A stretch of 36,659 nucleotides of DNA from Acidimicrobiales bacterium (GTDB lineage: Bacteria; Actinomycetota; Acidimicrobiia; Acidimicrobiales; DASWMK01), in assembly GCA_036399815.1 (NCBI GenBank), contig DASWMK010000047.1, positions 1 to 36,659 of the forward strand. Direction: 5' to 3'. Below the pieces are notes generated by a model. The model made no database searches. It was not told the DNA's origin and saw only the letters and a list, made by a program, of their open reading frames with translations. The position numbers and the translations under genes are program-made. Shown here piece after piece: positions 2,893 through 36,654 of this stretch (position 1 is its first letter; every line of letters starts with the position of its first letter).

Positions 2893-2898
2893 GGCGGC

Positions 2899-2904: not shown

Positions 2905-2965
2905 AGGGTCGCTCCGGACCGTACGCCCGCCGGCCCCCGCTGTCGAGGGGTGGCAGGCTGGCCCG

Positions 2966-4078: not shown

Positions 4079-4089
4079 CATCGCCCGCC

Positions 4090-9538: not shown

Positions 9539-9545
9539 TCGTCTC

Positions 9546-11159: not shown

Positions 11160-11610
11160 GAAGCTCGTAGCCGCCGAGGGCATTCGCCTGGCGTTCGACT
11201 CGATCGGGGGGCAGGACGTCTCGGGGATGCTCTATCGCCGCGGCGCGGTCACCGTCATGGTGGTCAACCAGGACCATCATCGGCACCGGCAGCGCTTCAC
11301 CATCGCGCACGAGCTCGGCCACCACCGCCTGCATGACGCTGACGCGTACCTCGACGGGACGGCAACGCTGCGCTTCCGCGACGGGACCTCGGCGGCCGGC
11401 ACGGATCGCGAGGAACGTGAGGCCAACAGCTTCGGCGCCGCTCTCCTGATGCCCGCCGACTGGGTCCGTGACAACTTCATGAGCCTGGTCACGGCCCGCC
11501 GCGGCGTCGATGAGGACACCGCGGTTGCCCGGCTGGCGCATCAGTTCGACGTTAGCGAGCAGGCGATGCGGTTCCGTCTCGTCAACTTGGGGCTCATTGA
11601 CCCGACGTGA
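11074..11610 (+). CDS. ImmA/IrrE-family zinc metallopeptidase, CapP-like
   Basis: A 178-aa protease with the zinc motif HELGH at residues 79-83 ('FTIAHELGHHRLH') and the following 'EREANSFGAALLMP', whose Glu is the likely third metal ligand. The C-terminal 'VARLAHQFDVSEQAMRFRLVNLGL' is the usual helical end of the family. ImmA proteins cleave their partner XRE repressor. CapP, the CBASS-associated version, is activated by single-stranded DNA and cuts CapH. The gene overlaps the regulator by 86 bases and starts with TTG behind a good AAGGAG. Its stop overlaps the GTG of a multicopper oxidase, an unrelated function, which suggests a junction rather than a designed operon. Confidence 0.92.
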   Translation: MPRVPGKVERAARQLLDAAGVTKPPVPVEKLVAAEGIRLAFDSIGGQDVSGMLYRRGAVTVMVVNQDHHRHRQRFTIAHELGHHRLHDADAYLDGTATLRFRDGTSAAGTDREEREANSFGAALLMPADWVRDNFMSLVTARRGVDEDTAVARLAHQFDVSEQAMRFRLVNLGLIDPT

Positions 11611-22611: not shown

Positions 22612-22711
22612 CCGCCCGGCCCGTCCGCGGACCCGACGCCCGCCGGCCATTGCCCCGGCCACCGGAGCGGGGGATGCTGTGGGCCCACCGCCGAGCAGGG
22701 AGACGGATTTC

Positions 22712-23206
22712 GTGAGAAAGCGACTCGTAGGGCTGGGCGTCATGGCCTCGGCGGTCGGGGTCGTCGCCGGCATCGTGTGGATGAGCTCGGCCGGCGCCAT
22801 CACGTCGGCCGTCACGTTCACGGTCGTCGCCCCGAACACCGAGGAGACCAACCTCGACCTCCGCCCGGCGGGCCCGTCCCGGGGCGACCAGTTCATCTTC
22901 AGCGGGCCGCTCCTGCGCAGCCCGAGCCAGGAGGCGGCCGGTCGCATCGACGGCCACTGCGTCACGACCAGCGTCCCCGGTGGCGGCACGGCCGAGAACC
23001 GCCAGCAGTGCTTCGTCACCGCCACCATCGGCACCGAGAACGGCGAGACCGAGATCGAGCTGGCCGGCGTCGGGCGCATCGAGGCCGAGGACGTCCTCCT
23101 CGCCGTCACCGGCGGCACCGGCCGCTACCAGAACGTCCGCGGCCAGGCGCTGTTCGACTTCACCGCGCCCGACCGGGTGACGATCGCCTTCTCGCTCATC
23201 CCCTAG
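22712..23206 (+). CDS. Exported allene-oxide-cyclase/dirigent-like barrel protein
   Basis: A 164-aa protein with a signal peptide ('MRKRLVGLGVMASAVGVVAG', cleavage near Ala28) and a beta-barrel body like plant allene oxide cyclase and dirigent proteins: 'RGDQFIFSGPLL', 'GRIDGHCVTTS', 'QCFVTATI', 'IELAGVG', 'AVTGGTGRYQNVRGQALFDF'. Bacterial members are exported; their ligands are unknown. The GTG start follows AGGGAGA at a good distance. It lies upstream of the RiPP cluster on the same strand but is separated from it by a perfect palindrome and about 180 bases, so I do not count it as part of that cluster. Confidence 0.75.
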   Translation: MRKRLVGLGVMASAVGVVAGIVWMSSAGAITSAVTFTVVAPNTEETNLDLRPAGPSRGDQFIFSGPLLRSPSQEAAGRIDGHCVTTSVPGGGTAENRQQCFVTATIGTENGETEIELAGVGRIEAEDVLLAVTGGTGRYQNVRGQALFDFTAPDRVTIAFSLIP

Positions 23207-23384: not shown

Positions 23385-24773
23385 GTGGCGGCGGTGGGAC
23401 CGGACACGCTGGCGGGCCTCCCCGGGCCCCGGCTGGGGCGGGACGAGGTGCGGGGGCTGGAGCTCGTCGCGCACCTGCTCGGGACGGCGGCCGCCCACCC
23501 CGGCACGGTCGTCTGCCACGCCGTCGGGCCGTTCTTCGCGTCGCACATGGGGACGGTCGGCTGCGTCGAGGTGCGGGGCGCGGCCGGCATTCGCGAGGTG
23601 CTGACGAACGCGTCGGACTTCGGCACGCTCCAGCCCGACGTGGCCGACCTGCCCGACGACGTCCGGTCGATGAGCCGGGGCGTGTTCACGTTCCACGGCC
23701 CCGGCCACGCCCGCCACCGGGCCGAGCTGCGGGACCTCGTCGTCCTCGACGACCGCACCGTGGCGGCGCTGCTCGGCGCCGTCCGGGAGGCGGTCGGCCG
23801 CTGGCCGGGCCCGCCGGTCGACCTGGCCGCCGCCTGCCGGGCCGTGGCCCGCCACGTGTGGAGCGCGGTGCTCTTCGGGCCGGGGGAGCGGGGCCTCGCC
23901 CTCGGGCGGGGGGTCGGCGCCGTCGTCGACGGCCGCCGGGCCCGGCGCCTGGCCACCACGCCGCTCGCCCGCCGGGCCGCCCACCGCCAGACCGTCCACG
24001 CCAGCCGGGCCCTGGCCCGGGAGCTGGCCGGCTGGCTCCGCCGGCCCGGCCGCGACGGCCTGCTCGCCGGCCTGGGCGACGGCCTGGCGGAGGGCGACGA
24101 CGACGAGGCCCTCACCCTGGCCGTGGCCCACGCCACCGCCGTCGCCGCGGCGTCGACCGAGCCGGCCGCGGCGAGCCTGGCCTGGGCCGTCCTCGCCCTC
24201 ACCCAGCGGCCCGACCTGCAGGACGAGCTGCGGGCGGCGCCGCCGGCGTTCGACGGCGGGCGGCCCCGGCGCGGCGAGCGGGACCTGCTCGACCGGGTGC
24301 TGGTCGAGAGCCAGCGCCTCCTGCCGTCCAGCGCGCTGGTCACCCGGGCCACCCTCCGGCCCGTGACCGTCGCCGGCCACGGCCTGCCGGCCGGCTGCGA
24401 GGTGATCGTCAGCTCGCTGGTCGCCCACCGCGACCCGGACCGGTTCCCCGACCCCACCCGCTTCGCCCCCGAGCGGTGGGCGGGCCTCGAGGTCACGCCG
24501 TTCGAGTTCTTCCCGTTCGGCGCCGGCGTCCGCGGCTGCCTCGGCGCCACCGTGGCCCGGGCCATGCTGCGGGCCACCCTGGCCGAGCTGCTGGCCACGG
24601 GCACGGTCCACCTGGCCTTCGACACCAGGGTCGGCTGGCAGGTGCCGGACGCGCTCGTGCCCGCCCCCGGCGTCCCGGTCGTCCTCGTGCCGGGCGACGC
24701 CGCCGCCGGGCCGCGCGGGCGGGCCGAGGGGCCGATCACGACCATCGTCGACTTCGGGCGGTTCGCCCCTTGA
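23385..24773 (+). CDS. Cytochrome P450, predicted RiPP crosslinking enzyme
   Basis: A P450 of about 462 aa. The heme-binding loop is 'FFPFGAGVRGCLG' with Cys385 as thiolate ligand, the K-helix ExxR is E308-R311 ('VESQR') and the PERW segment is present. In the I-helix the usual A-G-x-D/E-T reads 'AASTEPAAASLAW': the acid-alcohol pair is reversed (T-E), which may mark non-hydroxylating chemistry. It lies immediately upstream of a precursor peptide ending Tyr-Leu-Trp-Asp and an MNIO/B12-rSAM operon, so it probably links the aromatic rings of Tyr and Trp. Redox partners are not encoded nearby. GTG codons at 23385, 23394 and 23256 are possible starts; 23385 or 23394 gives the family N-terminus. 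Confidence 0.9.
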   Translation: MAAVGPDTLAGLPGPRLGRDEVRGLELVAHLLGTAAAHPGTVVCHAVGPFFASHMGTVGCVEVRGAAGIREVLTNASDFGTLQPDVADLPDDVRSMSRGVFTFHGPGHARHRAELRDLVVLDDRTVAALLGAVREAVGRWPGPPVDLAAACRAVARHVWSAVLFGPGERGLALGRGVGAVVDGRRARRLATTPLARRAAHRQTVHASRALARELAGWLRRPGRDGLLAGLGDGLAEGDDDEALTLAVAHATAVAAASTEPAAASLAWAVLALTQRPDLQDELRAAPPAFDGGRPRRGERDLLDRVLVESQRLLPSSALVTRATLRPVTVAGHGLPAGCEVIVSSLVAHRDPDRFPDPTRFAPERWAGLEVTPFEFFPFGAGVRGCLGATVARAMLRATLAELLATGTVHLAFDTRVGWQVPDALVPAPGVPVVLVPGDAAAGPRGRAEGPITTIVDFGRFAP

Positions 24774-24798
24774 CCACCCTGGTGGGCGTGCCTAGGTT
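24770..24798 (+). promoter_or_regulatory. Candidate promoter of the RiPP precursor
   Basis: TTGACC (24770-24775) and TAGGTT (24793-24798) are separated by exactly 17 bases and resemble housekeeping -35 and -10 boxes. The -35 box overlaps the P450 stop codon. Transcription would begin near 24805, leaving a 5' leader of about 50 bases before the precursor ATG. This would let the peptide be made in excess of the P450. Confidence 0.55.
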
Positions 24799-24855
24799 GG
24801 GCCCCGGTCCGGCGCCCCACGCGGGTGGGTCGCGGGCCTCGAGCGGAGGTGCTCC

Positions 24856-25059
24856 ATGGAGAGCAGCGAAGGCGGGAAGTACCAGGCGCGGCAGGGCGAG
24901 GGCGGCAGGAGCCTCGAGCTGTCGTTCGACGTGAGCGGCGACCGCCGGGACCAGATCATGCGGTGCCTGGAGAGCGGCGAGCTGCGGATGGTGCTGCAGG
25001 ACGTCGACGTGGAGCAGCTGTCCCGCGGCGACCTCGGCGGCGGCTACCTCTGGGACTGA
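24856..25059 (+). CDS. RiPP precursor peptide with C-terminal Tyr-Leu-Trp-Asp
   Basis: A 67-aa peptide with a perfect GGAGG 6 bases before its ATG. The leader (about residues 1-55) is charged and helical ('RRDQIMRCLESGELRMVLQDVDVEQL'). The end is 'SRGDLGGGYLWD', a Gly-rich hinge followed by Y64-L65-W66-D67 at the very C-terminus. It sits between a P450 and an MNIO/RRE/B12-rSAM/methyltransferase operon. By analogy with the aminopyruvatide pathway, the P450 would join the two aromatic rings, the MNIO would convert Asp67 to aminopyruvate, and the other two enzymes would methylate. I do not recognise the leader from a named family. The core assignment is inference from position and motif. Confidence 0.85.
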   Translation: MESSEGGKYQARQGEGGRSLELSFDVSGDRRDQIMRCLESGELRMVLQDVDVEQLSRGDLGGGYLWD

Positions 25060-25081
25060 GCCGGCCGCGGCGACGGTCGGC

Positions 25082-25933
25082 GTGAACGACGGCGGCGGGG
25101 CCCGGCCGGCGGTCGGCCTCGCCTGGGGCCCGGCGGCGCGCGCCCTGCTGCGGTCCGACCCTGCCCTGGTCGACCACGTCGAGGTGCCCTTCGAGCACCT
25201 CCGCCACGACCCGGGCACCGTCGACGCGCTCGGCGACGTGCCGGTCGTGCTGCACTGCGCGTCGATGTCGGTGGCCGGCTTCGTCGAGCCCGACGACGCC
25301 ACCCTGGCCGACATCCGGTCGTGGGCCGACCGGGTGGGCACGCCGTGGATCGGCGAGCACCTCGCGTTCGTGCTGGCCGACGACCCCGAGGCGCTCGTCG
25401 CCGGCACCGAGGGCGAGCCCACCCGGCTGACCTACACGATGGCCCCGCAGCTGAGCGAGCGGGTGCTGCGCCGGGTCGGCGAGAACCTCGACCGGCTGCG
25501 GGAGCGGTTCGACCACGAGCTCATCGTCGAGAACAACCCGCAGTACCTGGACGTGCCCGGCTCGGAGATGAGCCAGGTGGAGTTCGTGGCCGAGGTCGCG
25601 GCGCGCTTCGACGTCGGCCTGCTCCTCGACCTGACCCACCTCGCCGTGTCGGCCCACAACCTCGGCTTCGACCCGGCCGCCGCCCTCGCCGCGCTGCCCC
25701 TCGACCGGGTCGTCGAGGTCCATCTCTCCGGCATGTCGGTGCAGGGCGGCGTGGCCTGGGACGACCACGCCAGCCTGGCCCCGCCGGCCGTGCTCGACCT
25801 GTTCGCCACGGTCGCCGAGGAGGCCGCGCCGAGGGCCGTCACCCTCGAGTACAACTGGGCGCCCGACCACCGCCTCGACGCCGTCGTCGACCAGATCCTC
25901 GCCGTGCGGGCCGCGGTCGGCCGTGCCGGCTGA
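25082..25933 (+). CDS. MNIO (DUF692) multinuclear iron oxidative enzyme
   Basis: A 283-aa TIM-barrel enzyme of the MNIO family (MbnB, TglH), which uses two or three irons and O2 to remodel residues of a precursor peptide. Metal-ligand candidates are H58 ('VVLHCASMS'), E92/H93 ('GEHLAF'), E150-N151 ('VENNPQYL'), D183 and H186 ('LLDLTHLAVSAHN'), H214 ('VEVHLSG'), D228/H229 ('WDDHASL') and E256 ('LEYNW'). The family usually has Asn where H186 stands ('LLDxxN'), a difference worth noting. The GTG start is 22 bases after the precursor gene, and the stop overlaps the partner gene. In aminopyruvatide synthesis the MNIO acts on a C-terminal Asp, matching Asp67 of the precursor. Confidence 0.92.
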   Translation: MNDGGGARPAVGLAWGPAARALLRSDPALVDHVEVPFEHLRHDPGTVDALGDVPVVLHCASMSVAGFVEPDDATLADIRSWADRVGTPWIGEHLAFVLADDPEALVAGTEGEPTRLTYTMAPQLSERVLRRVGENLDRLRERFDHELIVENNPQYLDVPGSEMSQVEFVAEVAARFDVGLLLDLTHLAVSAHNLGFDPAAALAALPLDRVVEVHLSGMSVQGGVAWDDHASLAPPAVLDLFATVAEEAAPRAVTLEYNWAPDHRLDAVVDQILAVRAAVGRAG

Positions 25934-26681
25934 CACCGCCGCCGACCCGGCGTACTGCCACGCCGTGCTCGCCCGCCTGGTCGAGGACCCGGGCCGGGCG
26001 GCGTCGCCGGTGCCCGAAGGGCTCGACACCGAGCGGGTCCGCCGCCTCACCGGGTTCATCACCAAGGTCCGCCACAACCCGGTCCGGTTCCACCTGCCGC
26101 TGACCATGCGGGCCCTCGCCGCGGCCGGCGTGGAGATCGACTTCTTCGCCGACCTGGCGCCCGAGTTCGGCGAGCGCCGCCGCCGGGGGCTGTCCGACGC
26201 CGAGCGCGTCGCCCTGTTCGCCGACGCCCTGGACCGCTGGCTCGACCCCGCCGACCCCGCCCACCGCCTCGTGGCCGACGTGCTGGCCCACGAGCGGACG
26301 ATGGCCGAGGTGGCCGCCCACCCGCCGGTGCCGCCGCCCGACACCGGCGCCGTCGTCGGCCCGGCCAGCCGGCCCCGCCGCCGGCCCGGCGTGCGGGTGC
26401 TCCACCTGACCGTGCACCCGCCCGACGTGGCCGACCCCCCGCCCGGCGGCCTCGACCGGTCGCCCCGCTGCCACTGCTACGTGCCCACGCCGGCCGGGCC
26501 GCGCGTCAAGCGGCTGGAGCCGGCGCTCGCACCCCTCCTCGCCGCGGCCGACGGCTCGGCCACCGTGACCGCGATCACCCAGGCGCTCGGGCTCGACGGC
26601 GGCGCCGTGCCCCGGGTGGCCGAGGTGTTCCAGGTGCTGGCCCGGCGGGGGCTCCTCGACGTGGAGGGACCGTGCGCCTGA
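25923..26681 (+). CDS. MNIO partner protein with C-terminal RRE-like winged helix
   Basis: A 252-aa protein. The N-terminal two thirds are helical ('ERVRRLTGFITKVRHNPVRFHLPLTMRALAAAGVEIDFFADLAPEF'), as in MbnC/TglI-type partner proteins. After a Pro-rich linker comes a small alpha/beta segment ('PGVRVLHLTVHPP', 'RCHCYVPTPAGPRVKRLEPALAPLLAAADGS') and a winged-helix-like end ('VTAITQALGLDGGAVPRVAEVFQVLARRGLLD'). The last part resembles a PqqD-type RRE, the domain that binds leader peptides. Its likely job is to present the 67-aa precursor to the MNIO. The GTG overlaps the MNIO stop by 11 bases and its stop overlaps the radical SAM start. Confidence 0.85.
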   Translation: MPADTAADPAYCHAVLARLVEDPGRAASPVPEGLDTERVRRLTGFITKVRHNPVRFHLPLTMRALAAAGVEIDFFADLAPEFGERRRRGLSDAERVALFADALDRWLDPADPAHRLVADVLAHERTMAEVAAHPPVPPPDTGAVVGPASRPRRRPGVRVLHLTVHPPDVADPPPGGLDRSPRCHCYVPTPAGPRVKRLEPALAPLLAAADGSATVTAITQALGLDGGAVPRVAEVFQVLARRGLLDVEGPCA

Positions 26682-28579
26682 CCCTGGTCGACAACCTCGT
26701 GTTCCCGGTGGGCCGCCAGCACACCGACTTCGACGTGCACCCCAACATCGGGCTGGCGTCGCTCGCCGCCGTCGTGCGCCTCGCCGGCCACGACGTCCGC
26801 ATCGTCGACCCCAAGCGCGAGGTCAGGCAGGGCCGGCTGGCGCTCGGGCCCGACCTCTACCGCGACGCCGCCGAGGCCCTCCTCGCCGGCTCGCCCGACG
26901 CCGTCGGGTTCACCACGCTCGGCTGCTCGTTCATCTTCACGGTCAGGGTGGCCGAGCAGCTGAAGCGGCTGGCCCCCGGCCTCCCCGTCCTCCTCGGCGG
27001 GCCCCACGCCACCGTGCTCGACCGGGCCATCATGGAGGCCTTCCCGGTCGTGGACGTCATCGTCCGCCACGAGGCCGAGGACACGATCGGCCCCGTCCTC
27101 GACGCCCTCCCCACCATGCGCCTCTCCGCCGTGCCCGGCGTGACCTACCGGACGGGCCGCACGGCGCTCGGCATCCGCGCCAACGCCGGCGCGCCGAAGG
27201 TCGACGACCTCGACACCCTGCCCTTCCCGGCCTACGACCTCTATCCCGTCGAGGACCTGGACCTGCCCTACCTGCGGGTCGAGGCCGGCCGGGGCTGCCC
27301 GTGGGCGTGCACGTTCTGCTCGACGGCGACGTTCTTCCAGCGCTCCTACCGGCTGAAGTCGCCGGCCCGGCTCGTCGCCGACCTCGACACCCTGCACGAG
27401 CGGTACGGGCACACGACCTTCAAGCTCGAGCACGACCTGTTCACGGTCAACAAGCGCAAGGTGGCGGCGTTCTGCGACGCCGTGCGGGACCGGGACTACG
27501 AGTGGATGGCGTCGGCCCGCATCGACTGCGTGGACGAGCCCCTGCTCGAGCGCATGGCCGAGGCCGGGTGCCGGCAGCTGTACTTCGGGGTCGAGACCGG
27601 GTCGGTGGCCCTCCAGGCCTCGCTGCGCAAGCGCCTCGACCTGTCGCTGCTCGAGCCCGTGCTGCGCAAGGCCGGCGAGGTCGGGATCGAGGCCGTCACG
27701 TCGTTCATCACCGGGTTCCCCGAGGAGACCGAGGAGGACCGGGACGCCACCCTGGTCACCATCGGCGCGCTGACGACCGGCCTCGACCCCGCGCCGACGG
27801 CCCAGCTCCACCTGCTCCTGCCCGAGCCCGGCACCGGCGAGTTCGAGGAGCACCGGGACGAGCTGGCCTTCGACGGCTACGTGGCCGAGTTCAACGCCGA
27901 GCCCCACCGGGGCGACCACGACCTGATCGCCGCCCACCCGTCGATCTTCGCCACCTACCACCACTACCCGGGACTGATCCCGCGCCAGGAGCAGGTCGCC
28001 GTCGTCGAGGTCACCCGCCGGTTCCTCGCCCTCGGGCCGCTCGTGCTGCGCGAGGTGCTGGCGGCCAGCGGGCTCGACCTCGCCGCGCTCGTGCTCGACG
28101 CCTGCCGCCACGCCGGGGACCGGCGCGACGCCGCCCTCGTGGTCGACGACGCCGTCCGCCGCTTCGGCCGCGACCACCTCGTCACCTCGCTCGTCCGCCT
28201 CCGCGTCGGCCTGGCCGAGCCGCCGGCCGACCGGTCGCCGAGCGACGGCGCCACCCTCGTGCTGTCGCCCTACGCCGTGCTGTTCGACGACCTCCACGAC
28301 TGCGGCCGGGCCCTCGACCACCTCGTCAACCGGCCCGGCGAGCCGCTCCCCGACGAGCTGACGGCCGCCCGGCACGACTACGTCGCCGTCCGCACGCCGG
28401 GCGGGGTGCGGCTGTTCCAGGTCGACCCGCTGACCCACCTCGTGGCGTCGGCCTTCGCCGTCCCGGCCACGCCGGCCGGCGTGAAGGAGCGCCTCGACGG
28501 GCTGGTCGGCGGCGACGTGCCGGTCGACGGGGTCGTCGAGCGCCTCGTGCGGGCGGAGGCGCTCGTCGCCGGTGCCTGA
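26672..28579 (+). CDS. B12-binding radical SAM enzyme, predicted peptide C-methyltransferase
   Basis: A 635-aa class B radical SAM protein. The N-terminal cobalamin-binding fold (about 1-150) has 'PNIGLASLAAVVRLAGHDVRIVD', 'VGFTTLGCSF' and 'PVLLGGPHATVLD'. The radical SAM barrel has the cluster motif C209-x3-C213-x2-C216 ('GCPWACTFC'), then 'TFKLEHDLFTVNK' and 'YFGVETGS'. The C-terminal 230 residues are a cluster-specific extension with a possible winged-helix end. Such enzymes methylate unactivated carbons, for example the beta-carbon of an aromatic residue, using methylcobalamin. In the aminopyruvatide pathway the equivalent enzyme makes beta-methyltyrosine, so Y64 or W66 of the precursor is the probable target. 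Confidence 0.9.
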   Translation: MRLTLVDNLVFPVGRQHTDFDVHPNIGLASLAAVVRLAGHDVRIVDPKREVRQGRLALGPDLYRDAAEALLAGSPDAVGFTTLGCSFIFTVRVAEQLKRLAPGLPVLLGGPHATVLDRAIMEAFPVVDVIVRHEAEDTIGPVLDALPTMRLSAVPGVTYRTGRTALGIRANAGAPKVDDLDTLPFPAYDLYPVEDLDLPYLRVEAGRGCPWACTFCSTATFFQRSYRLKSPARLVADLDTLHERYGHTTFKLEHDLFTVNKRKVAAFCDAVRDRDYEWMASARIDCVDEPLLERMAEAGCRQLYFGVETGSVALQASLRKRLDLSLLEPVLRKAGEVGIEAVTSFITGFPEETEEDRDATLVTIGALTTGLDPAPTAQLHLLLPEPGTGEFEEHRDELAFDGYVAEFNAEPHRGDHDLIAAHPSIFATYHHYPGLIPRQEQVAVVEVTRRFLALGPLVLREVLAASGLDLAALVLDACRHAGDRRDAALVVDDAVRRFGRDHLVTSLVRLRVGLAEPPADRSPSDGATLVLSPYAVLFDDLHDCGRALDHLVNRPGEPLPDELTAARHDYVAVRTPGGVRLFQVDPLTHLVASAFAVPATPAGVKERLDGLVGGDVPVDGVVERLVRAEALVAGA

Positions 28580-29567
28580 CCGGCGCTCGGTCCACGACGC
28601 CGTCGAGGGGTTCCACGTGGCCGCGCTGGTCGCCGGCCTCGACCGGCTGGGCGTGCTCGACGCCATGGCCGAGCCGGCGAGCCCGGCCGACCTCGCGGCC
28701 CCCGCCGGGCTCGACGCCGGCCTGCTCGGCCTCTGCCTCGAGTATCTCGCCGGGGTGACCGACCTGGTCGAGCGGCGGGGCGAGCGCTACGCGGTGACGG
28801 GGCGGTGGGACGCCTACGCCAGGGCGTGCGTCCGCCAGTACGTCGGCGCCTACGGCCCGCTCTCGCTCGACCTGGCCGCCGTGCTGCGCGACGCCACGAC
28901 GGGGGCCGGGCTGGTCGACCGGGGCGAGCACGCCCGCAGCTTCTCGGGCGCGCCGACCGTCGCCGGCGTCGTCGCCGACCTCGTCCTCCAGCTCGGCCTC
29001 GCCCCGACCCTCGACCTCGGCTGCGGCGCCGGCGGGCTGCTGGCCGACCTCGGCCGGCGGGACCCGGCCTTCGTCGGCTGGGGGGTCGACGCCAGCCCGG
29101 CGATGTGCGCGGCGGCCAGGGAGCGGCTGGCCGGCGACGGGCTGGCCGGCCGGGTGACCGTGGTCGAGGGCGACGCCTTCGACCCGGCCGCGGTGGCCGC
29201 CGCCGTGCCCGCCGGGGAGGTCCGCTCGATCACGGCGACCAGCCTGCTGAACGAGCTGTGGCGCGACGGGCGGGACGGGCGGCCGACCGTCGCCGGTTGG
29301 CTGCGGTCGCTCGCCGGCGGCTTCCCGGGCCGGGCCGTCGTCGTCACCGACTACTTCGGCCGCCTGGGCCGCCGGCCGCCGCCGTGGCCGGCGCCCGGCG
29401 CCCTCCACGACCTCGTCCAGGCCCTGTCCGGGCAGGGGGTCCCGCCCGCGGACCACGACGGCTGGCGGGAGGCCTACCGGGAGGCCGGCGCCCAGGTGCT
29501 GCACCTGGCCGAGGACGGCGCCCGGTCGTTCTTCGTCCACCTCCTGCTCCTGCCCGGCCGCCGCTGA
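28572..29567 (+). CDS. Class I SAM-dependent methyltransferase of the RiPP cluster
   Basis: A 331-aa protein. An N-terminal winged-helix dimerisation region (about 1-80: 'DAVEGFHVAALVAGLDRLGVLDAM') is followed by a Rossmann domain with motif I 'LDLGCGAGG' from residue 147, acidic loop 'GVDASPAM' and 'VVEGDAF'. This is the layout of O- and C-methyltransferases such as those acting on natural products. The GTG overlaps the radical SAM stop by 8 bases, making it the last gene of the operon. In the published aminopyruvatide pathway a methyltransferase acts on the beta-carbon of the C-terminal alpha-keto acid, so that is the expected role; acting on a different group cannot be excluded. Confidence 0.88.
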   Translation: MPDRRSVHDAVEGFHVAALVAGLDRLGVLDAMAEPASPADLAAPAGLDAGLLGLCLEYLAGVTDLVERRGERYAVTGRWDAYARACVRQYVGAYGPLSLDLAAVLRDATTGAGLVDRGEHARSFSGAPTVAGVVADLVLQLGLAPTLDLGCGAGGLLADLGRRDPAFVGWGVDASPAMCAAARERLAGDGLAGRVTVVEGDAFDPAAVAAAVPAGEVRSITATSLLNELWRDGRDGRPTVAGWLRSLAGGFPGRAVVVTDYFGRLGRRPPPWPAPGALHDLVQALSGQGVPPADHDGWREAYREAGAQVLHLAEDGARSFFVHLLLLPGRR

Positions 29568-30264: not shown

Positions 30265-32568
30265 TCAGGACGGCCGGGTGATGGCGAGGTTCACGCAGAA
30301 CATCGTCCCCGAGTCGCCGCCGGCCAGGTCCGTCCACCGAAGGGTCCAGGTGCCGTTCACCGTGGCGCCCTGGAGGCCCGACAGCGGCTGGTCGGGCGTG
30401 AACGTCCCGTTGAACGGGGCCACCCCCGACCCGATCGGCGTCGCCGCCGAGTCGTCGAACCCCGTCAACGTGCCGGCGCAGCTGGTGGTGCCGCTGCCGA
30501 AGTTGTCGCCGTCCGCGCCCCGCCGGTTGGCCAGCATCACCTGGGTGCCGTCCGGCGAGATCAGCGAGACCTGGACGTCGCTGTCGTAGGTGTGGTTGGC
30601 CCGGATGGACACGTTCACGTCGACGGCCCGCGTCCCGGCCGGGGCCGACACGGTGATCGGGACGTTCGTCGTGGTCACGTCGGCCAGCGGGGTGGCGATG
30701 TTCCCGGTGCTGGCGTTCGTCACCACCGTGCTGCCCGGGTCGATCGTCGTGGTCACCGAGCGGTTGTTGTCGCTCTGGTCCGGGTCCTTCGTCCCCGTCG
30801 TGAGCGAGGCCGTCGTCGTGACGGTCCCCGAGCCGGCGGCGAACGCGTCGGCCTGGACGGTGACGGTCGCGCCGGCCGGGATGCGGCCGAGCCGGCAGAC
30901 CGCGGTCTGCCCGCCGTAGCACGTGCCGGCCGACGGGGTGACGTCCTCGGCGACGAGGCCGGGCCCGAGCTTGACCGTCAGGAACACGACCTGGGCGGTC
31001 TTCGTCCCGGTGTTCGTCACCGTGGCCGAGAACGTGGTCGTGCCGCCCTGGGTCACCGGGTCGGGGGCGTCGCTGAACGCGAGGCTGACGTCGGTGGCGC
31101 CCTTGGCCGGGACCTTGGCGTAGCGGACGTCGGGCTGGTTGGCGTGCACCGAGTTGCCGTCCCGGTTGTCGCCCCACACCGGGAAGAAGCTGGCGTCGGT
31201 GGCGGCGATCTGGTCGTAGTCGCCCATGTACACCGGGTTGATGACCGGGTCCTGGCCGATGGCCACCGGGAACACCGGGCTCATGGCGAACTCGGTGTTC
31301 AGGGCGAGGGTGCCGGCCGGCGCCTTGCCGACGCGGCCGTAGCGCTGCATGCCGAGGTTGGCGGCGTCGTTGCGGCGGTCGTACCACGACACCATCCCGT
31401 TGTTGCCGTTCGGCGTGAACGCGATCGTCGGGAAGAACTGGTCGTTCGTGGTGGCGTCGGTGTTCATCCGCACCCGCGGCGACCACGACGACCCGCCGTT
31501 GGTCGACGACACGTAGTACACGTCCGAGCGGTCGACGCCGGCCGGGTCGTCGTTGAACACGACGAAGATGGCGCCGGTCACCGGGTGGACGGCGACGTGC
31601 GGGAACGCGTTCGAGCGGAACCCGCCGTTGAGCCCGAGGTCGCCGTTGGTGCCGGGGCTGAGGATGTCGGTGACGAGCACGGTCGGCCCGAAGGAGACAC
31701 CGCAGTCCGTCGACTTCCGCACGTTGATCACGTTGCCGGCGCCGAGCCAGAAGTAGTACACGCTGTGGTCGGGGCCGACGGCGACGTACGCGCCCTGGGA
31801 CGTGCCGAGCACGATGTCGAGCCCGCCGCTCGGGCCCCACGTGGCGCCGTGGTCGGTCGACCGGGTGAACTGCATCCCCTCGTTGGCCCCGCCGAACTGG
31901 CGCCAGCCGAGGTACACGTTGCCCTGGCAGGTGCCAGGGAAGTTGTCCACCGCCATCCACTCCTTGTCCTGCTGCGACCCGGCCGGCATCCCCGGCGTGG
32001 CGTTCACCGGCGCCTGGAACGACTGGCCGCCGGTGTCGGAGCGGAACAGCTGGATGTTGGCCAGCGAGTTGAACTCGAGCGTCGCCAGGTAGACCCGCCC
32101 GGTCGCCTGGTTGGCCGCGAGCACGGGGTCGCCCGCGTCACCGCCGGGGCTGTTGGGCAGCGCGCCCATGTCGGTGAACGAGTTCCCCGAGTTGGTGGAC
32201 ACCGACCAGCCGGTGAAGTGGTTGTTGGACCCGGTGTAGGAGCCGGAGTCGTTGTAGGCGACGACGACGTTGGTGCCGACGGCGACGGCCGACGTCTCGC
32301 TCTGGGTGTCGCGGGCGGTCGTGTCGGCCGCCGGGTTGTTGACGAGGGTCGTCGGGTCGGTCACGACGGCGACGACGTCGGAGTCGAACTGCCCCGGTGG
32401 GAACCGTGCGGCGAGCGCCGCTCGGCGGTTGAAGGCGGCTCCCGACATGGCGGTGGCGGTCGGCGGGCCGGGCTTGGTGGTCGGTCGCGACGCCTCGGCA
32501 GGAGACGGGGCGACGAGCGCGATCACGACGGCGGCGATCAAGGCCGCGCGCCGGTACGGACGGTGCAT
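30265..32568 (-). CDS. Large secreted Asp-box protein with DUF11-like and P domains
   Basis: A 767-aa exported protein. A signal peptide (residues 1-27, 'RAALIAAVVIALVAPSPAEA') is followed by a sialidase-fold propeller (about 60-480) with Asp boxes such as STNSGNSF, SDTGGQSF, STDHGATW, STDCGVSF and STNGGSSW. Next is a CARDB/DUF11-like beta domain (about 500-620, 'PVTQGGTTTFSATVTNTGTKTA'), then a proprotein-convertase-type P domain to the end ('IRANHTYDSDVQVSLISPDGTQVML', 'VNGTWTLRWTDLAGGDSGTM'). The function is probably surface adhesion or glycan binding; sialidase activity is not evident. The ATG at 32568 follows a strong GGGAGGGAG. The frame continues upstream to 35709 only as a shadow of the transporter gene. 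Confidence 0.87.
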   Translation of the reverse strand: MHRPYRRAALIAAVVIALVAPSPAEASRPTTKPGPPTATAMSGAAFNRRAALAARFPPGQFDSDVVAVVTDPTTLVNNPAADTTARDTQSETSAVAVGTNVVVAYNDSGSYTGSNNHFTGWSVSTNSGNSFTDMGALPNSPGGDAGDPVLAANQATGRVYLATLEFNSLANIQLFRSDTGGQSFQAPVNATPGMPAGSQQDKEWMAVDNFPGTCQGNVYLGWRQFGGANEGMQFTRSTDHGATWGPSGGLDIVLGTSQGAYVAVGPDHSVYYFWLGAGNVINVRKSTDCGVSFGPTVLVTDILSPGTNGDLGLNGGFRSNAFPHVAVHPVTGAIFVVFNDDPAGVDRSDVYYVSSTNGGSSWSPRVRMNTDATTNDQFFPTIAFTPNGNNGMVSWYDRRNDAANLGMQRYGRVGKAPAGTLALNTEFAMSPVFPVAIGQDPVINPVYMGDYDQIAATDASFFPVWGDNRDGNSVHANQPDVRYAKVPAKGATDVSLAFSDAPDPVTQGGTTTFSATVTNTGTKTAQVVFLTVKLGPGLVAEDVTPSAGTCYGGQTAVCRLGRIPAGATVTVQADAFAAGSGTVTTTASLTTGTKDPDQSDNNRSVTTTIDPGSTVVTNASTGNIATPLADVTTTNVPITVSAPAGTRAVDVNVSIRANHTYDSDVQVSLISPDGTQVMLANRRGADGDNFGSGTTSCAGTLTGFDDSAATPIGSGVAPFNGTFTPDQPLSGLQGATVNGTWTLRWTDLAGGDSGTMFCVNLAITRPS

Positions 32569-32654
32569 AGGTTTTCTCCCTCCCGCCGGGCAGCGTACGC
32601 CCTCACGCTCCGCCGTGGGCTGGAGCGCGGTCGCGGCGCGGCCGAGCCGTGCGC

Positions 32655-33116
32655 CTACGCCGGTGCGAGGAAGTCCACGGCGACCCGCACCGGCCCGTCC
32701 GGGTGGACGGCGTGGGGCACGCCGGGCGGGACGGGCTGGGCGTCGCCGGCCCGCAGCACCCGGTCGACGGGCGGGTCGGTGGCCATCGTGAACCGCAGCG
32801 ACCCGTCGAGCACCCGGACCACCGCCCACGTGCCCTCGGCCACCCGGTGGTCGCGCCGCAGGCCGGCGGGCACGGTGGCGGCGTCGAACGGGCCGGCCGT
32901 GCGCACCGTCCGCAGGCCATCGGGCGGCTCGGCCCGGTCGCAGAGCGGGCAGTCGAGCGCGGTGCCCACCCGGCCGGCACGGCCCTCCTCGGTCGTCACC
33001 CACGGGCGCTCCCGGAACGGCGGCTGGTGGCGCACGTGCTGGCCGTGCCGGCAGGACAGCTCGGCCACCCAGTCGCCGGCGTCGTCCCGGTGGAACCCCT
33101 CGATGGTGCGGCGCAC
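32655..33116 (-). CDS. DUF3565-DUF1971 fusion protein
   Basis: A 153-aa protein joining two small domains. Residues 1-65 match DUF3565 ('TIEGFHRDDAGDWVAELSCRHGQHVRHQPPFRERPWV', ending in a CPLC pair), and residues 67-153 match DUF1971/TehB-N ('PDGLRTVRTAGPFDAATVPAGLRRDHRVAEGTWAVVRVLDGSLRF', 'PPGVPHAVHP'), a cupin-like fold found in tellurite-resistance proteins. The GTG at 33116 begins exactly at the first domain; the longer frame to 33218 would overlap the divergent hydrolase gene. The biochemical role is unknown, and a link to tellurite or metal stress rests only on the domain name. Confidence 0.8.
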   Translation of the reverse strand: MRRTIEGFHRDDAGDWVAELSCRHGQHVRHQPPFRERPWVTTEEGRAGRVGTALDCPLCDRAEPPDGLRTVRTAGPFDAATVPAGLRRDHRVAEGTWAVVRVLDGSLRFTMATDPPVDRVLRAGDAQPVPPGVPHAVHPDGPVRVAVDFLAPA

Positions 33117-33168
33117 GACGGGAGCGTTCCCCGCCGGCCCCCCGGGGTAGGGGAGGGGCCTCGCCGAC

Positions 33169-33175
33169 AGGGAGG
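33169..33175 (+). promoter_or_regulatory. Ribosome binding site deciding a TTG start
   Basis: AGGGAGG lies 5 bases before the TTG at 33181. No in-frame ATG or GTG exists nearby that would keep the conserved N-terminal strand of the hydrolase, so this site fixes the start. Confidence 0.75.
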
Positions 33176-33180
33176 CCGGC

Positions 33181-34116
33181 TTGCGCTCGGACGTCGCCCA
33201 CGCCAACGGGATCACCATCGCCTACGACACGTTCGGGTCGCCCGCCGACCCGCCGGTGCTGCTGGTGATGGGCCTCGCCACTCAGCGGATCGCCTGGCCC
33301 GACGAGCTGTGCGAGGACCTGGCCGCCGCCGGCCGGTTCGTCGTGCGCTTCGACAACCGCGACGTCGGCCAGTCCACCCACCTCCCCGAGCTCGGCACGC
33401 CGAGGCTGCGCGACCTCGCCCGGCGGCGGTCGCCCTACCGGATCGACGACCTGGCCGACGACGTGGCCGGCCTGCTCGACGCCCTCGGCCTCGACTCGGC
33501 GCACGTCGTCGGCGCGTCGATGGGCGGGTTCGTGGCCCAGACCGTCGCCCTCCGCCACCCGGCCCGCGTCCGCACCCTCACCCTGATCATGACGTCGACG
33601 GGGAGCCGGCGGGTCGGCCGGCCCGCCCTCGGCCTCGTGTGGCGGCTCGCCCTCCGGCGGCCGGCGTCGAGCCGGGCGCGGGCCGTGCGCCAGGTGGTCG
33701 ACACGTTCCGGCTGATCGGGTCGCGCGGCTACCCCTTCGACGAGGAGTGGACCCGGCGGATGGCCGCGGCCGCCTACGACCGGGGCCACGACCCGGCCGG
33801 GCACCGCCGCCAGCTGGCCGCCATCACGGCCCAGCCCGACCGCACGGCCGACCTGGCCAGGCTGACCCTGCCCACCCTCGTCGTCCACGGCCTCGACGAC
33901 CGCCTCGTCAGCCCGACCGGCGGCCTCGCCCTCGCCCGCACGATCCCCCGGTCCACCTTCGTCGGGTTCTCGGGCATGGGCCACGACCTGCCCCGCCCGC
34001 TGTGGCCGGCCATCACCAGGGAGCTCGTGGCCCACACGGCCGCCCCGGCGCCCGGCCGGCCCCTCGCCGCCGTCGCCGCCGGCCCGTATCCGGCGCCGTC
34101 GCCCGAGGAGTGGTAA
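33181..34116 (+). CDS. Alpha/beta hydrolase
   Basis: A 311-aa single-domain hydrolase. The N-terminus 'ANGITIAYDTFGSPADPPVLLVMGL' gives the oxyanion-hole region. The nucleophile elbow is 'VVGASMGGFVAQ' with the catalytic Ser, followed by 'VVHGLDDRLV' with the acid and 'FSGMGHDLP' with the His. 'RFDNRDVGQSTHL' is typical of the esterase/haloperoxidase-like group. The substrate is not predictable. It starts with TTG behind a strong AGGGAGG and is followed after 39 bases by the transporter gene on the same strand, so the two may be cotranscribed. Confidence 0.9.
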   Translation: MRSDVAHANGITIAYDTFGSPADPPVLLVMGLATQRIAWPDELCEDLAAAGRFVVRFDNRDVGQSTHLPELGTPRLRDLARRRSPYRIDDLADDVAGLLDALGLDSAHVVGASMGGFVAQTVALRHPARVRTLTLIMTSTGSRRVGRPALGLVWRLALRRPASSRARAVRQVVDTFRLIGSRGYPFDEEWTRRMAAAAYDRGHDPAGHRRQLAAITAQPDRTADLARLTLPTLVVHGLDDRLVSPTGGLALARTIPRSTFVGFSGMGHDLPRPLWPAITRELVAHTAAPAPGRPLAAVAAGPYPAPSPEEW

Positions 34117-34155
34117 GCCCTGCGTGGCGTGTCCACCACGGGGAGGGGCGGCATC

Positions 34156-36654
34156 ATGCAGCGGTTCTGGTCGCGGTTCGCGGTCGTCATGGGGAAGCGG
34201 GCGGGGCTCGTCTCGCTCGCCGGCCTGGTCGTGACGCTGGCGCTCGGCGCGGGGATCTCCCGGCTGGACTTCGCCACCGGCCAGGACAGCTACCTGGAGC
34301 GGGACAGCACGGTCTACCGGGACAACGTCGCCTACCAGCGGCTGTTCGGCGGGCAGGCGATGCTGGGCGTGATCACCATGGACGAGGGCCACACGGTGGC
34401 CGAGCTGTTCGACGACGGCGCGTCCGAGCTGCGCCGCCTGCACGACGACCTGGCCGCCACCGGTGACTACCAGGGCGTCGTCACCCCGGTCGAGGCCCTC
34501 GAGTTCTCCGACCGGCTGGTGGGGGCCGGGCCGCCGGCCTGCGACCCGACCACGGGCGTGGCCGGGCAGCTGCTGGTGCGGGCGCTCGGCCTGGAGACCG
34601 ATCCCGACCGGCAGGCCGTCCGGCTGGCCAACGCCGGGGAGACCCTCGAGCGGATCAACGCCGTGCCGTGCGAAGAGCGCACCCTCGACAACCCGGAGTG
34701 GGTCGACTTCCTGCTCCACGAGGCCAACGGGGAGGTCAGGGCCTCGGCCCGCTCGTTCTTCCCCGACGACCGGCACGCGCAGGTGCTCGTGCGGCTGCGG
34801 GGCAACCTGTCGATCGAGGACGAGGGCGCCAACGCGGTGGTCGCCCAGGAGCGGATGCGCCGCCTCGACCTGCCGAACGCCACGGTCGTGGCGACCGGCG
34901 CGCCGATCCTGCTGAAGGACATCAACGACTACCTGCGGGGCGGGATGCTGGTGCTCGGCGGCATCGCCGCCGCCGTGATGGTCGTGATCCTGCTGCTGCT
35001 GTTCGACGTGCGGTGGCGGCTGCTCCCGCTCGCCGTCATCCTCGTCGGCGTCGTGTGGGCCTTCGGCGTGGCCGGCTACCTCGGCATCCCGCTCACGATC
35101 GCCACGATCGCGGGACTGCCGGTCATGCTCGGCGTCGGCATCGACTACGCCATCCAGCTCCACGCCAGGGTGGAGGAGGAGGCCGTCCTCGACCGGGCCG
35201 AGCACCCCATCCAGGAGACGGCCCGCAACCTGAACCCGGCCCTCCTCGTCGTCACCTTCGACGCCATCTTCGCCTTCGCCGCCCTGCGGTTCGCCAAGGT
35301 GCCGATGATCCGCCAGTTCGGCCTGCTGCTCGCCGTCGGCATCGCCGTGATCTGCCTGTGCTCGATCGTGCTGCCCACCGCCATCCTCGGCATCCGGGAG
35401 TTCCGGTCGCCGACGAGGGGCAGGGACTTCCGGGGCGGCGCGCTGGGCCGCCTCACCGAGTTCCTCGGCCGGCTGCCCCAGGCCTTCGCCCTCCCGCTCG
35501 CCGTGCTCGCCGTCGTCGTGTTCGCCGGCGGCATCCTCGTGGAGGACGACCTGACCCTCCAGACCGACCCGATCCAGTGGGTCAACCAGGAGTCGGAGAC
35601 GATCAGGGACATCCGCACGGTGGAGCGGGAGGTCGGCAGCTCGAGCGAGCTCGGCGTCTACGTGCGCTCCGACGACGTGTTCAGCGACGACACCGTCGCC
35701 TTCCTCCACGACTTCACCGCCGAGCAGCTGCGGGACTTCGGCGCCGACCGGGCCGACGTGCCCAGGGGCTTCGTGACCGCGGCGAGCATGGAGGCCACCC
35801 TGGCGTCGCTCGTCGCCCTACCGGGGGCGAGCGACGTCACCCCGCTCGGGTCGGAGGTGCGGGCCGCCTCGGAGATGGCGCCCGAGGACGTGCGGCGCCT
35901 CCTCGTGAGCGACGACGGCACGGCGGCCAACGTGGTCTTCCGCGTGGAGCCCGGCGCGGTCGGCGACCTGGCGACCGTGGTCGACGAGATCCGCGACGGC
36001 ACCGACCCGCCCGAGGGCGTGTCGGCCACCCCATCGGGGCTCGGCGTGGTGGGCGTGGGGCTGCTCGAGAACCTCGAGGCCAACCGCGTCGTCCTCACCT
36101 ACCTCGCCATGGCGTTCGTGTTCCTGTTCCTCACCGTCCGCCTCCGCTCGCTCGTGCGGGCCCTGCTGTCGCTCGTGCCGGTGGCCATCGCCGTCGGCAC
36201 GGCGTCGCTCGTCGCCTACGCCGCCGGCTTCCGGCTCAGCCCGCTCACGGCCGTGGGCGGCCCGCTCGTCGTCGCCCTGTGCACCGAGTTCACCTCGCTG
36301 ATCCTCCTGCGCTTCGTGGAGGAGCGGCAGCGGGGGCACGAGCCCCAGGAGGCGGCCGACGTGGTCGGCCAGCGCACCGGCCGGGCGTTCATCGTCTCCG
36401 CGCTCACCGCCATCTCCGGGGTGGCCGTGCTGTCCCTGTCGTCGCTGCCCCTGCTGCGGGACTTCGGGCGCATCGTGGCCATGAACGTCACCGTCGCCCT
36501 CCTGAGCGCCCTCGTCGTCCTCCCGCCCCTGCTGGTGTGGGCCGAGCGGCGGGGCTGGGTGACCCGCGGGCTGGTGCGGCGGCAGGAGCCGTTCATCCCG
36601 ACCGACCGCCCCGCCGCCGACCCGGCCAGGGCCGGCGGGCCGGTCACCGCCTGA
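34156..36654 (+). CDS. MMPL/RND-family membrane transporter
   Basis: An 832-aa transporter, a full-length duplicated RND protein of the MMPL/HpnN type. Helix 1 (about 17-37) is followed by a large external domain to about residue 255 and helices 2-6 (about 260-420, 'GGMLVLGGIAAAVMVVILLLLFDVRW', 'PVMLGVGIDYAIQLHARVEEE'). The second half repeats this: helix 7 at about 445-465, an external domain, then helices 8-12 from about 640 to 800 ('LTYLAMAFVFLFLTVRLRSLVRALLSLV', 'PLVVALCTEFTSLILLRFVEE'). The Asp in 'GIDYA' is the probable proton-relay residue; the second half has 'CTEF'. Cargo is likely a lipid or hydrophobic compound. The ATG at 34156 follows GGGGAGGGG and is preferred over an in-frame start at 34129. 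Confidence 0.92.
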   Translation: MQRFWSRFAVVMGKRAGLVSLAGLVVTLALGAGISRLDFATGQDSYLERDSTVYRDNVAYQRLFGGQAMLGVITMDEGHTVAELFDDGASELRRLHDDLAATGDYQGVVTPVEALEFSDRLVGAGPPACDPTTGVAGQLLVRALGLETDPDRQAVRLANAGETLERINAVPCEERTLDNPEWVDFLLHEANGEVRASARSFFPDDRHAQVLVRLRGNLSIEDEGANAVVAQERMRRLDLPNATVVATGAPILLKDINDYLRGGMLVLGGIAAAVMVVILLLLFDVRWRLLPLAVILVGVVWAFGVAGYLGIPLTIATIAGLPVMLGVGIDYAIQLHARVEEEAVLDRAEHPIQETARNLNPALLVVTFDAIFAFAALRFAKVPMIRQFGLLLAVGIAVICLCSIVLPTAILGIREFRSPTRGRDFRGGALGRLTEFLGRLPQAFALPLAVLAVVVFAGGILVEDDLTLQTDPIQWVNQESETIRDIRTVEREVGSSSELGVYVRSDDVFSDDTVAFLHDFTAEQLRDFGADRADVPRGFVTAASMEATLASLVALPGASDVTPLGSEVRAASEMAPEDVRRLLVSDDGTAANVVFRVEPGAVGDLATVVDEIRDGTDPPEGVSATPSGLGVVGVGLLENLEANRVVLTYLAMAFVFLFLTVRLRSLVRALLSLVPVAIAVGTASLVAYAAGFRLSPLTAVGGPLVVALCTEFTSLILLRFVEERQRGHEPQEAADVVGQRTGRAFIVSALTAISGVAVLSLSSLPLLRDFGRIVAMNVTVALLSALVVLPPLLVWAERRGWVTRGLVRRQEPFIPTDRPAADPARAGGPVTA

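What the first reader, a model, noticed from the sequence alone, without database searches (positions are those of the whole stretch)
23385..29567. Complete aminopyruvatide-like RiPP gene cluster in an actinobacterium
Seen: P450, 67-aa peptide, MNIO (DUF692), RRE-type partner, B12-binding radical SAM enzyme and class I methyltransferase in one run on the plus strand, the last four genes overlapping. Known: the published aminopyruvatide (apy) pathway uses the same set (P450 biaryl crosslink, MNIO conversion of a C-terminal Asp to aminopyruvate, B12-rSAM beta-methylation, methyltransferase on the alpha-keto acid). Inferred: this cluster makes a related but different product. There is no dedicated protease or transporter inside the cluster.
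Basis: partly seen in the sequence, partly recalled or inferred. Interest (0 to 1): 0.93.

Follow-up and report, generated by a model that had tools for sequence, protein, structure and literature searches.

The report
Divergent Tyr-Trp aminopyruvatide gene cluster
This actinobacterium carries six neighbouring genes that are predicted to turn the end of a small peptide (Tyr-Leu-Trp-Asp) into a ring with a reactive tip, likely a protease inhibitor, and its ring-closing enzyme belongs to a separate branch that would have to recognise its peptide without the arginine that the known enzyme needs.

Summary
Six open genes on the plus strand (23385-29567) encode a P450, a 67-aa precursor, an MNIO, its RRE partner, a B12-radical SAM enzyme and a methyltransferase. 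Each has its best NCBIfam match in the matching aminopyruvatide (Apy) model. The precursor passes both ApyA cut-offs; the five enzymes fall below their strict equivalog cut-offs. Trees place the MNIO inside ApyH and the P450 as sister to ApyO. What is new is a distinct branch. Its four known precursors all end YLWD and lack the Arg/Lys at position 1 that nine of nine ApyO-type precursors have and that ApyO needs in vitro (PMC13192836). Its P450s differ at four of five substrate-pocket residues that I could map by motif, including loss of the residue equivalent to Asp422 (kept in 0 of 14, against 10 of 10). The likely product is a Tyr-Trp-crosslinked, beta-methyl-Trp aminopyruvatide made by a P450 with altered substrate recognition. 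Crosslink chemistry, processing and activity are untested. New variant of a known kind.

The parts
23385..24773 (+). apyO-like cytochrome P450 (462 aa), predicted Tyr-Trp crosslinking enzyme; member of a branch sister to ApyO
   Evidence: PF00067 E 1e-34; NCBIfam ApyO 283.3 bits, cut-off 525, next model 85.5; tree; AlphaFold2 pLDDT 90
23925..23927 (+). P450 Val181, at the position taken to be ApyO Phe181 (Leu7 pocket; mapped by the conserved YF motif)
   Evidence: F in 10 of 10 ApyO-type, V in 14 of 14 of the branch
24147..24149 (+). P450 Ala255, at the position taken to be ApyO Val260 (Leu7 pocket)
   Evidence: V/I/M in 10 of 10 ApyO-type, A in 14 of 14
24633..24635 (+). P450 Gly417, at the position taken to be ApyO Asp422 (Arg1 pocket)
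   Evidence: D in 10 of 10 ApyO-type, G 13 and A 1 of 14 in the branch
24648..24650 (+). P450 Asp422, at the position taken to be ApyO Ile427 (Leu7 pocket)
   Evidence: V/I in 10 of 10 ApyO-type, D in 14 of 14
24845..24849 (+). Shine-Dalgarno-like GGAGG, six bases before the precursor ATG
   Evidence: read in sequence
24856..25059 (+). apyA-like precursor, 67 aa, ends RGDLGGGYLWD
   Evidence: NCBIfam ApyA 58.9 bits (cut-off 47) and broader ApyA 57.2 (cut-off 40); only such hit in the genome at E <= 0.1
24964..24978 (+). CLESG = conserved C-B-X2-3-G motif (Cys37), the motif needed by ApyHI in the published system
   Evidence: motif and its role from PMC11117315
25030..25032 (+). Asp59 at substrate position 1, where the ApyO-type precursors fetched have Arg or Lys
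   Evidence: requirement from PMC13192836
25045..25056 (+). C-terminal Tyr64-Leu65-Trp66-Asp67, predicted modification site
25082..25933 (+). apyH-like MNIO (283 aa), predicted to convert C-terminal Asp to aminopyruvic acid
   Evidence: PF05114 E 4.5e-41; ApyH 380.2 bits, cut-off 400; tree
25923..26681 (+). apyI-like MNIO partner (252 aa)
26340..26678 (+). C-terminal RRE-type winged-helix domain of the partner (residues about 140-252)
26672..28579 (+). apyD-like B12-binding radical SAM enzyme (635 aa), predicted beta-methylation of Trp66
   Evidence: PF02310 and PF04055; ApyD 742.2 bits, cut-off 750
28572..29567 (+). [quoted passage not shown]
   Evidence: ApyS 353.2 bits, cut-off 400; second model is 2-ketoarginine methyltransferase, 51.5 bits

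Best explanation
The window holds six open genes, in the order apyO-A-H-I-D-S, of a divergent branch of the aminopyruvatide RiPP class, and their enzymes are predicted to crosslink Tyr64 to Trp66, beta-methylate Trp66, convert Asp67 to aminopyruvic acid and C-methylate that residue. Shown here: gene content and order, family identity of each protein, the TglI-like fold model of the partner, and the tree positions of the MNIO and the P450. Inferred from the published Burkholderia pathway: each reaction and the order (crosslink and beta-methylation first, then ApyHI, then ApyS). Also inferred, with lower confidence (about 0.6): the P450 no longer reads an Arg/Lys at substrate position 1. In this branch that position is Asp, Glu, Asp or Asn, and the P450 has lost the residue equivalent to the Arg-contacting Asp422 and changed the Leu7 pocket. 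[quoted passage not shown] The confidence given is for the class and the four reactions.
For: Six adjacent genes each hit the matching Apy model best. The precursor has the C-terminal Asp, the CBX2-3G motif and aromatics at -2 and -4, which the discovery paper ties to presence of a P450 (PMC11117315). Ten of ten readable P450-bearing loci (window, L003-L011) have those aromatics; L012 and L013, where no P450 was found, do not. MNIO tree: the window is in a 17-row clade (100/100) inside ApyH (100/99). P450 tree: 15-row branch sister to ApyO. Partner fold TglI-like. Co-variation: position 1 is R/K in 9 of 9 ApyO-type precursors and in 0 of 4 of the branch (Fisher P 0.0014); four of five mapped pocket positions share no residue between the groups, against 58 of 405 columns overall, P = 0.0017. 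ApyO crosslinks a Y8W variant of ApyA with -2 Da (PMC13192836). Desmethylaminopyruvatide A inhibits cathepsins L and B and papain at 0.3-0.6 nM.
Against: No experiment. Five of six proteins are below the strict NCBIfam equivalog cut-offs. The P450 is only 28-31% identical to ApyO-types, so it could do another oxidation. ApyO numbering was mapped by motif spacing, because the ApyO sequence itself was not available; Glu20 could not be mapped, and Asp459 only doubtfully. The branch is long, so disjoint columns are not rare: among 62 columns invariant in ApyO-types, 15 are lost in the whole branch, and the pocket's share of these (2 of 3) is not significant (P 0.14). Only 4 precursors carry the position-1 result; apart from the window, their pairing with branch enzymes rests on one equal contig length (P0124 with MNIO P0011). 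Rows related by descent are not independent, so both P values are optimistic. Expression is unknown.
Confidence: 0.8

Rival explanations
1. Ordinary aminopyruvatide cluster (rival to the recognition part only): the P450 works exactly like ApyO, and the sequence differences at position 1 and in the pocket are neutral drift on a long branch.
For: Same gene set; ApyO accepts Y8W; many columns differ between the two P450 groups (58 of 405); the residue taken for Asp459 is not conserved even among ApyO-types.
Against: In ApyO every change of Arg1 was deleterious, with only R1K keeping about 8%, yet all four branch precursors have D, E, D or N there; the Asp422 equivalent is lost in 14 of 14 branch P450s while 10 of 10 ApyO-types keep it.
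Confidence: 0.35
2. The P450 does something other than a Tyr-Trp crosslink, for example hydroxylates Trp or Tyr, or links Leu, and the MNIO acts on the uncrosslinked or hydroxylated peptide.
For: P450 is only about 30% identical to ApyO-types; Leu7 pocket changed (F181V, V260A, I427D by my mapping); Foldseek shows only a general P450 fold.
Against: Both aromatics are kept at -2 and -4 in 4 of 4 branch precursors, the pattern reported only with P450s; in the published pathway ApyHI needs the crosslink.
Confidence: 0.12
3. A silent or decaying cluster that no longer makes a product.
For: Not found in the other genomes sampled near it: ApyD in 0 of 197 other relatives, ApyH in 0 of 396 others of the order, as expected of a patchily held, dispensable cluster.
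Against: All six frames open, motifs intact, tight overlaps; metagenome relatives of the precursor keep the same core at 57-69% identity, which suggests continued selection.
Confidence: 0.05

Closest known systems
Aminopyruvatide (apy) cluster of Burkholderia thailandensis E264 (PMC11117315)
   Same: Same six gene functions; precursor with CBX2-3G and C-terminal Asp; overlapping H-I-D genes; no protease in the cluster
   Different: YLWD instead of YLYD; no Arg at position 1; five enzymes below equivalog cut-offs; P450 in a separate branch from the ApyO-types (the Burkholderia ApyO itself was not in the tree)
ApyO substrate study (PMC13192836): natural WxY (26) and YLW (2) precursors of 53
   Same: The YLW motif is already on record in two precursors and ApyO crosslinks an engineered YLW peptide
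   Different: No natural YLW enzyme was studied in the sections read and the YLW linkage was not solved there; loss of Arg1 together with a P450 pocket change is not described in the passages read
Apy clusters L003-L011: Planosporangium thailandense (Actinomycetota), Bradyrhizobium, Bryobacterales, Nitrospira, Tahibacter, Burkholderiaceae, two Lysobacterales, Dyella
   Same: P450, precursor, MNIO, partner, B12-rSAM, methyltransferase in the same order
   Different: YLYD, YKYD or WLYD cores with R/K at position 1; ApyO-type P450s at 469-645 bits in the seven scored against 283 here; 48-54% MNIO identity
TglHI (3-thiaglutamate pathway, Pseudomonas syringae), MNIO + partner structure 8hi7/8hci
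   Different: Acts on a C-terminal Cys (Table 1 of PMC12452194), not Asp; absence of P450 and B12-rSAM there is recalled
Biphenomycin-like clusters (PbsA/PbsCD; PMC12257519, abstract start in the listing; Table 1 of PMC12452194)
   Same: MNIO acting in a macrocyclic RiPP pathway
   Different: MNIO hydroxylates Phe to ortho-Tyr; the window MNIO's best model is ApyH

Membership tests
Aminopyruvatide (apy) RiPP class | MNIO of the ApyH family with its RRE partner (called class-defining in PMC11117315) | tested here: met
   ApyH best model 4.9e-114, though 380.2 of 400 bits; ApyI 1.9e-38, though 132.3 of 200; tree inside ApyH; partner fold TglI-like
Aminopyruvatide (apy) RiPP class | Precursor with central CBX2-3G and C-terminal Asp | tested here: met
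   CLESG at Cys37 and C-terminal Asp67; both ApyA models over cut-off
Aminopyruvatide (apy) RiPP class | B12-rSAM and methyltransferase of the ApyD and ApyS families in the cluster (97% and 93% in the survey) | tested here: met
   ApyD 4.7e-223 (742.2 of 750), ApyS 1.3e-105 (353.2 of 400): best models, both under cut-off
Aminopyruvatide (apy) RiPP class | C-terminal aminopyruvic acid in the product | not testable with these tools
   needs mass spectrometry and NMR
ApyO equivalog (NCBIfam NF050147) | Score at or above 525 bits | tested here: not met
   283.3 bits; four branch relatives 247-276; six other Planosporangium-genus P450 matches 141-165 next to the ApyO of L003 at 616. L004 (484.6) and L008 (469), which are ApyO-type by tree, also miss it
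ApyO-type P450 and substrate | Arg/Lys at substrate position 1 with Asp422 in the P450 | tested here: not met
   Asp at position 1; Gly at the position mapped to Asp422
ApyO + branch P450s as one family | Monophyly against other P450s | tested here: met
   25 rows 100/98 against 14 P450s from three genera; a wider P450 sample was not tested
RRE-containing MNIO partner (PME type 2) | TglI-like two-domain fold: helical domain plus RRE-type winged helix | tested here: met

The most novel reading that the evidence does not exclude
This branch has swapped the charge logic of substrate recognition. Its P450 lost the acidic pocket that grips Arg1 (Asp422 to Gly, with an Arg gained two residues before it and an Asp-to-Arg change near the N-terminus) and instead binds an acidic or neutral residue at position 1. 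It thereby closes a Tyr-Trp macrocycle of new connectivity beside a beta-methyltryptophan, giving a new aminopyruvatide subclass of Cys-protease inhibitors.
Probability: 0.33. Interest if true: 0.66.

Novelty: new variant of a known kind. Interest (0 to 1): 0.52.

Why it matters
Aminopyruvatides pair a P450-made ring with an MNIO-made alpha-keto acid; the desmethyl form inhibits papain-type proteases below 1 nM. The published work says that the P450 needs Arg1. Here is a natural branch that does without it, in which substrate and enzyme differ together. That gives a direct experiment on how peptide-crosslinking P450s choose their substrates, a native YLW system whose crosslink chemistry is not reported in the papers read, and a second P450 scaffold for making macrocyclic protease inhibitors.

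Tried and rejected
Considered and rejected: MNIO or P450 outside RiPP clades; a bufferin, HvfB-type, chryseobasin or methanobactin MNIO (BufB 118.8 bits, HvfB 76.0, ChrH 25.4, MbnB 19.4 against ApyH 380.2); a second precursor in the genome (one hit only at E <= 0.1); decay (all frames open).

Rows dropped: L015 (Massilia; broken reading frames in P450, precursor and methyltransferase) from the P450 and precursor tables, though its MNIO fragment is in the tree. L012-L014 are not in the P450 comparison: no P450 match was found in them; L014 is a 5.7 kb contig, so absence there means little. P0139 (336 aa fragment) is in the trees but not in the 14-row pocket counts (it reads VGW..PD, so it agrees at 422 and 427). 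P0136 was cut after residue 335 because its annotated start is too far upstream. Alignment A1 holds 32 of the 120 listed MNIO hits (563 in all) plus the window; the tree likewise holds 32 of them, a slightly different set. Of the 23 P450 loci, 11 entered the tree together with three; five were window or ApyO copies or pieces of L021 and were left out by hand, and seven did not pass the match or length filter. The tree tool warned of long branches among the outgroup MNIOs.
Full report
OBSERVATION. The six genes are present at the stated coordinates, all on the plus strand and all open: P450 23385-24773, precursor 24856-25059, MNIO 25082-25933, partner 25923-26681, B12-radical SAM 26672-28579, methyltransferase 28572-29567. 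The last four overlap by 11, 10 and 8 bases. The published cluster also has overlapping H, I and D genes (PMC11117315). The window is bases 1-36659 of contig 47 of a 4.16 Mb genome in 287 contigs. Thirteen WhiB hits support Actinomycetota (the marker role of WhiB is recalled).

FAMILY IDENTITY. In NCBIfam each protein's best model is the matching Apy model: ApyO 2.9e-84 (283.3 bits, cut-off 525), ApyA 5e-16 (58.9, cut-off 47) and broader ApyA (57.2, cut-off 40), ApyH 4.9e-114 (380.2, cut-off 400), ApyI 1.9e-38 (132.3, cut-off 200), ApyD 4.7e-223 (742.2, cut-off 750), ApyS 1.3e-105 (353.2, cut-off 400). So the precursor passes, and the five enzymes are near or far misses of strict equivalog cut-offs. 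The second-best models are far behind (BufB 118.8 for the MNIO, pentalenene oxygenase 85.5 for the P450, BchE 120.1 for the rSAM, 2-ketoarginine methyltransferase 51.5 for ApyS; none for ApyI). All 33 members of MNIO alignment A1 match ApyH at E <= 1e-100. The genome holds one MNIO and one ApyA-like precursor.

TREES. MNIO tree, 55 rows: 46 ApyH rows separate from nine other MNIOs of the same host genomes (100/99). The window lies in a 17-row clade (100/100, stem 0.53) whose 16 other members are unnamed proteins, 65-81% identical in the 15 that were aligned. The one named actinobacterial row, Planosporangium (L003), falls outside it. The tool warned of long branches among the outgroup rows. 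P450 tree, 39 rows: window plus 14 unnamed P450s form one group (100/100, in 100% of 200 bootstrap trees); ten ApyO-type P450s form another (99/98); together they stand apart from 14 other P450s of the window's genome, the Planosporangium genus and Dyella (100/98). So the P450 is sister to ApyO-types on a long stem (1.28). The Burkholderia ApyO itself was not available for the tree.

RELATED LOCI. One scan of the species-genome collection gave 36 pattern matches and 13 loci. Nine (L003-L011) hold P450, precursor, MNIO, partner, B12-rSAM and methyltransferase in this order. Their precursors end YLYD (1), YKYD (1) and WLYD (7). In L012 and L013 no P450 was found and the precursors end DTQD and QLID; L014, on a short contig, ends KQID. 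This agrees with the discovery paper's rule that aromatics at -2 and -4 go with a P450. Near the window's organism the cluster is rare: the only match in 198 relatives, 396 of the phylum, 395 of the class (ApyD) and 397 of the order (ApyH) was the window's own genome (overlapping samples).

WHAT IS DIFFERENT. In the ApyO study (PMC13192836; abstract, results, discussion and legends read, supplements not) position 1 of the substrate is Arg in 74% and Lys in 22% of the precursors; any change of Arg1 was deleterious, R1K keeping about 8%; only 2 of 53 precursors are YLW. The window precursor ends GDLGGGYLWD: position 1 is Asp. Its three relatives in the 5.8-billion protein set (P0122, P0123, P0124; the search returned four proteins, one of them the window's own) all end GGGYLWD with Glu, Asp and Asn at position 1. 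The window has an Arg two residues earlier, but the relatives have Ala, Gly, Gly there, so it is not a shifted Arg1. All nine ApyO-type precursors fetched have Arg (5) or Lys (4). The 4% of published precursors without R/K is about two peptides, perhaps the two YLW ones; that is a guess.

P450 POCKET. The AlphaFold3 model in that paper places Arg1 among Glu20, Asp422 and Asp459, and Leu7 among Phe181, Val260, Pro265 and Ile427. Counts over 10 ApyO-types and 14 branch P450s: 181 F 10 to V 14; 260 V/I/M 10 to A 14; 265 P in all; 422 D 10 to G 13, A 1; 427 V/I 10 to D 14. Four of five positions share no residue, against 58 of 405 ungapped columns overall (hypergeometric P 0.0017). Against this: on the stricter test of columns invariant in ApyO-types (15 of 62 lost, 35 kept) the pocket is not special (P 0.14); rows are related by descent; the residue taken for Asp459 varies among ApyO-types too; Glu20 is unmapped. 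Near the lost Asp422 the branch gains an Arg (R415, 13 of 14 basic) and loses acids at 407 and 429, and an N-terminal Asp (8 of 10) becomes Arg (14 of 14); but 14 columns across the protein gain a conserved basic residue, so a charge swap is a hypothesis, not a result. Pairing of genes in the unnamed contigs is by equal longest-contig lengths only: precursor P0124 with MNIO P0011 (1944), P450s P0126, P0132, P0138 with MNIOs P0004, P0013, P0017 (3625, 6962, 4524).

MECHANISM. From the published pathway (PMC11117315: abstract, first part of the results, the sections on ApyO/HI/S and on the Cys, and the discussion): B12-rSAM beta-methylates the penultimate residue and the P450 crosslinks the aromatics at -2 and -4; ApyHI then turns the C-terminal Asp into aminopyruvic acid, needing the unmodified Cys of CBX2-3G; ApyS methylates its beta-carbon. 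Transferred to this peptide (inference): Tyr64-Trp66 crosslink, beta-methyl-Trp66, Asp67 to aminopyruvic acid, then 3-amino-2-oxobutanoic acid. ApyO formed a -2 Da crosslink on an engineered YLW peptide, but its linkage was not solved in the text read; for WLY it was indole N to Tyr C-epsilon. Desmethylaminopyruvatide A inhibits cathepsins L and B and papain at 0.3-0.6 nM but not trypsin, chymotrypsin or the SARS-CoV-2 main protease; the crosslinked YLW pentapeptide without the keto acid was tested at 25 uM and is not reported as an inhibitor. So inhibition of papain-type proteases is the likely activity and would rest on the keto acid.

NOVELTY. The class is known, and Actinomycetota members are reported. 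Searches for 'aminopyruvatide' (6 papers, 4 listed), 'aminopyruvatide' with 'YLW' (1 paper) and the names ApyO, ApyH, ApyA (25 papers, 20 listed, most of them unrelated uses of the letters) found no description of the Arg1-less branch in the sections read; supplements could not be read. A search for methyltryptophan with radical SAM, RiPP and B12 (50 papers with three of four terms, 15 listed; listing only) does not settle whether beta-methyl-Trp would be new in RiPPs. Verdict: new variant of a known kind.

Noticed in passing
window 6664-11183 (-): CBASS-like anti-phage operon: SAVED-PDDEXK effector (6664-8121), TRIP13-like ATPase (8121-9194) and an oligonucleotide cyclase in the C-terminal part of a 545-aa frame (9546-11183) whose first 225 residues have no listed match.
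   Followed up: partly
window 22679-23206 (+): Possible secreted protein with weak dirigent / allene-oxide-cyclase-barrel matches, ending 178 bases before the P450 on the same strand; its link to the cluster is unknown.
   Followed up: no
window 33181-34116 and 34129-36654 (+): Alpha/beta hydrolase next to an MMPL-family transporter, 3.6 kb and more downstream; could serve maturation or export, but nothing ties them to the cluster.
   Followed up: no
window 30265-35709 (-): Very long minus-strand frame with DUF11 and proprotein-convertase P-domain matches and no matched peptidase domain; its upstream part overlaps the MMPL gene on the other strand, so probably only part is coding.
   Followed up: no
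L005, L006, L013, L014: Apy-type clusters or ApyH-like genes in Acidobacteriota, Nitrospirota and Bacteroidota, beyond the Pseudomonadota and Actinomycetota named in the text of the discovery paper.
   Followed up: partly
L012, L013, L014: ApyH relatives whose candidate precursors keep the Cys motif and C-terminal Asp but have no aromatic pair, and no P450 was found; perhaps a crosslink-free type in which the MNIO acts without the ring that ApyHI needs in the published system. The L013 genome gave no ApyA-model hit and L012 only a weak one.
   Followed up: partly
L015 (Massilia sp. H-1): Apy cluster with broken reading frames in P450, precursor and methyltransferase; decay or sequencing error, not resolved.
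   Followed up: no
window 2533-5763 (+): Large frame whose C-terminal third matches arylsulfotransferase (ASST).
   Followed up: no
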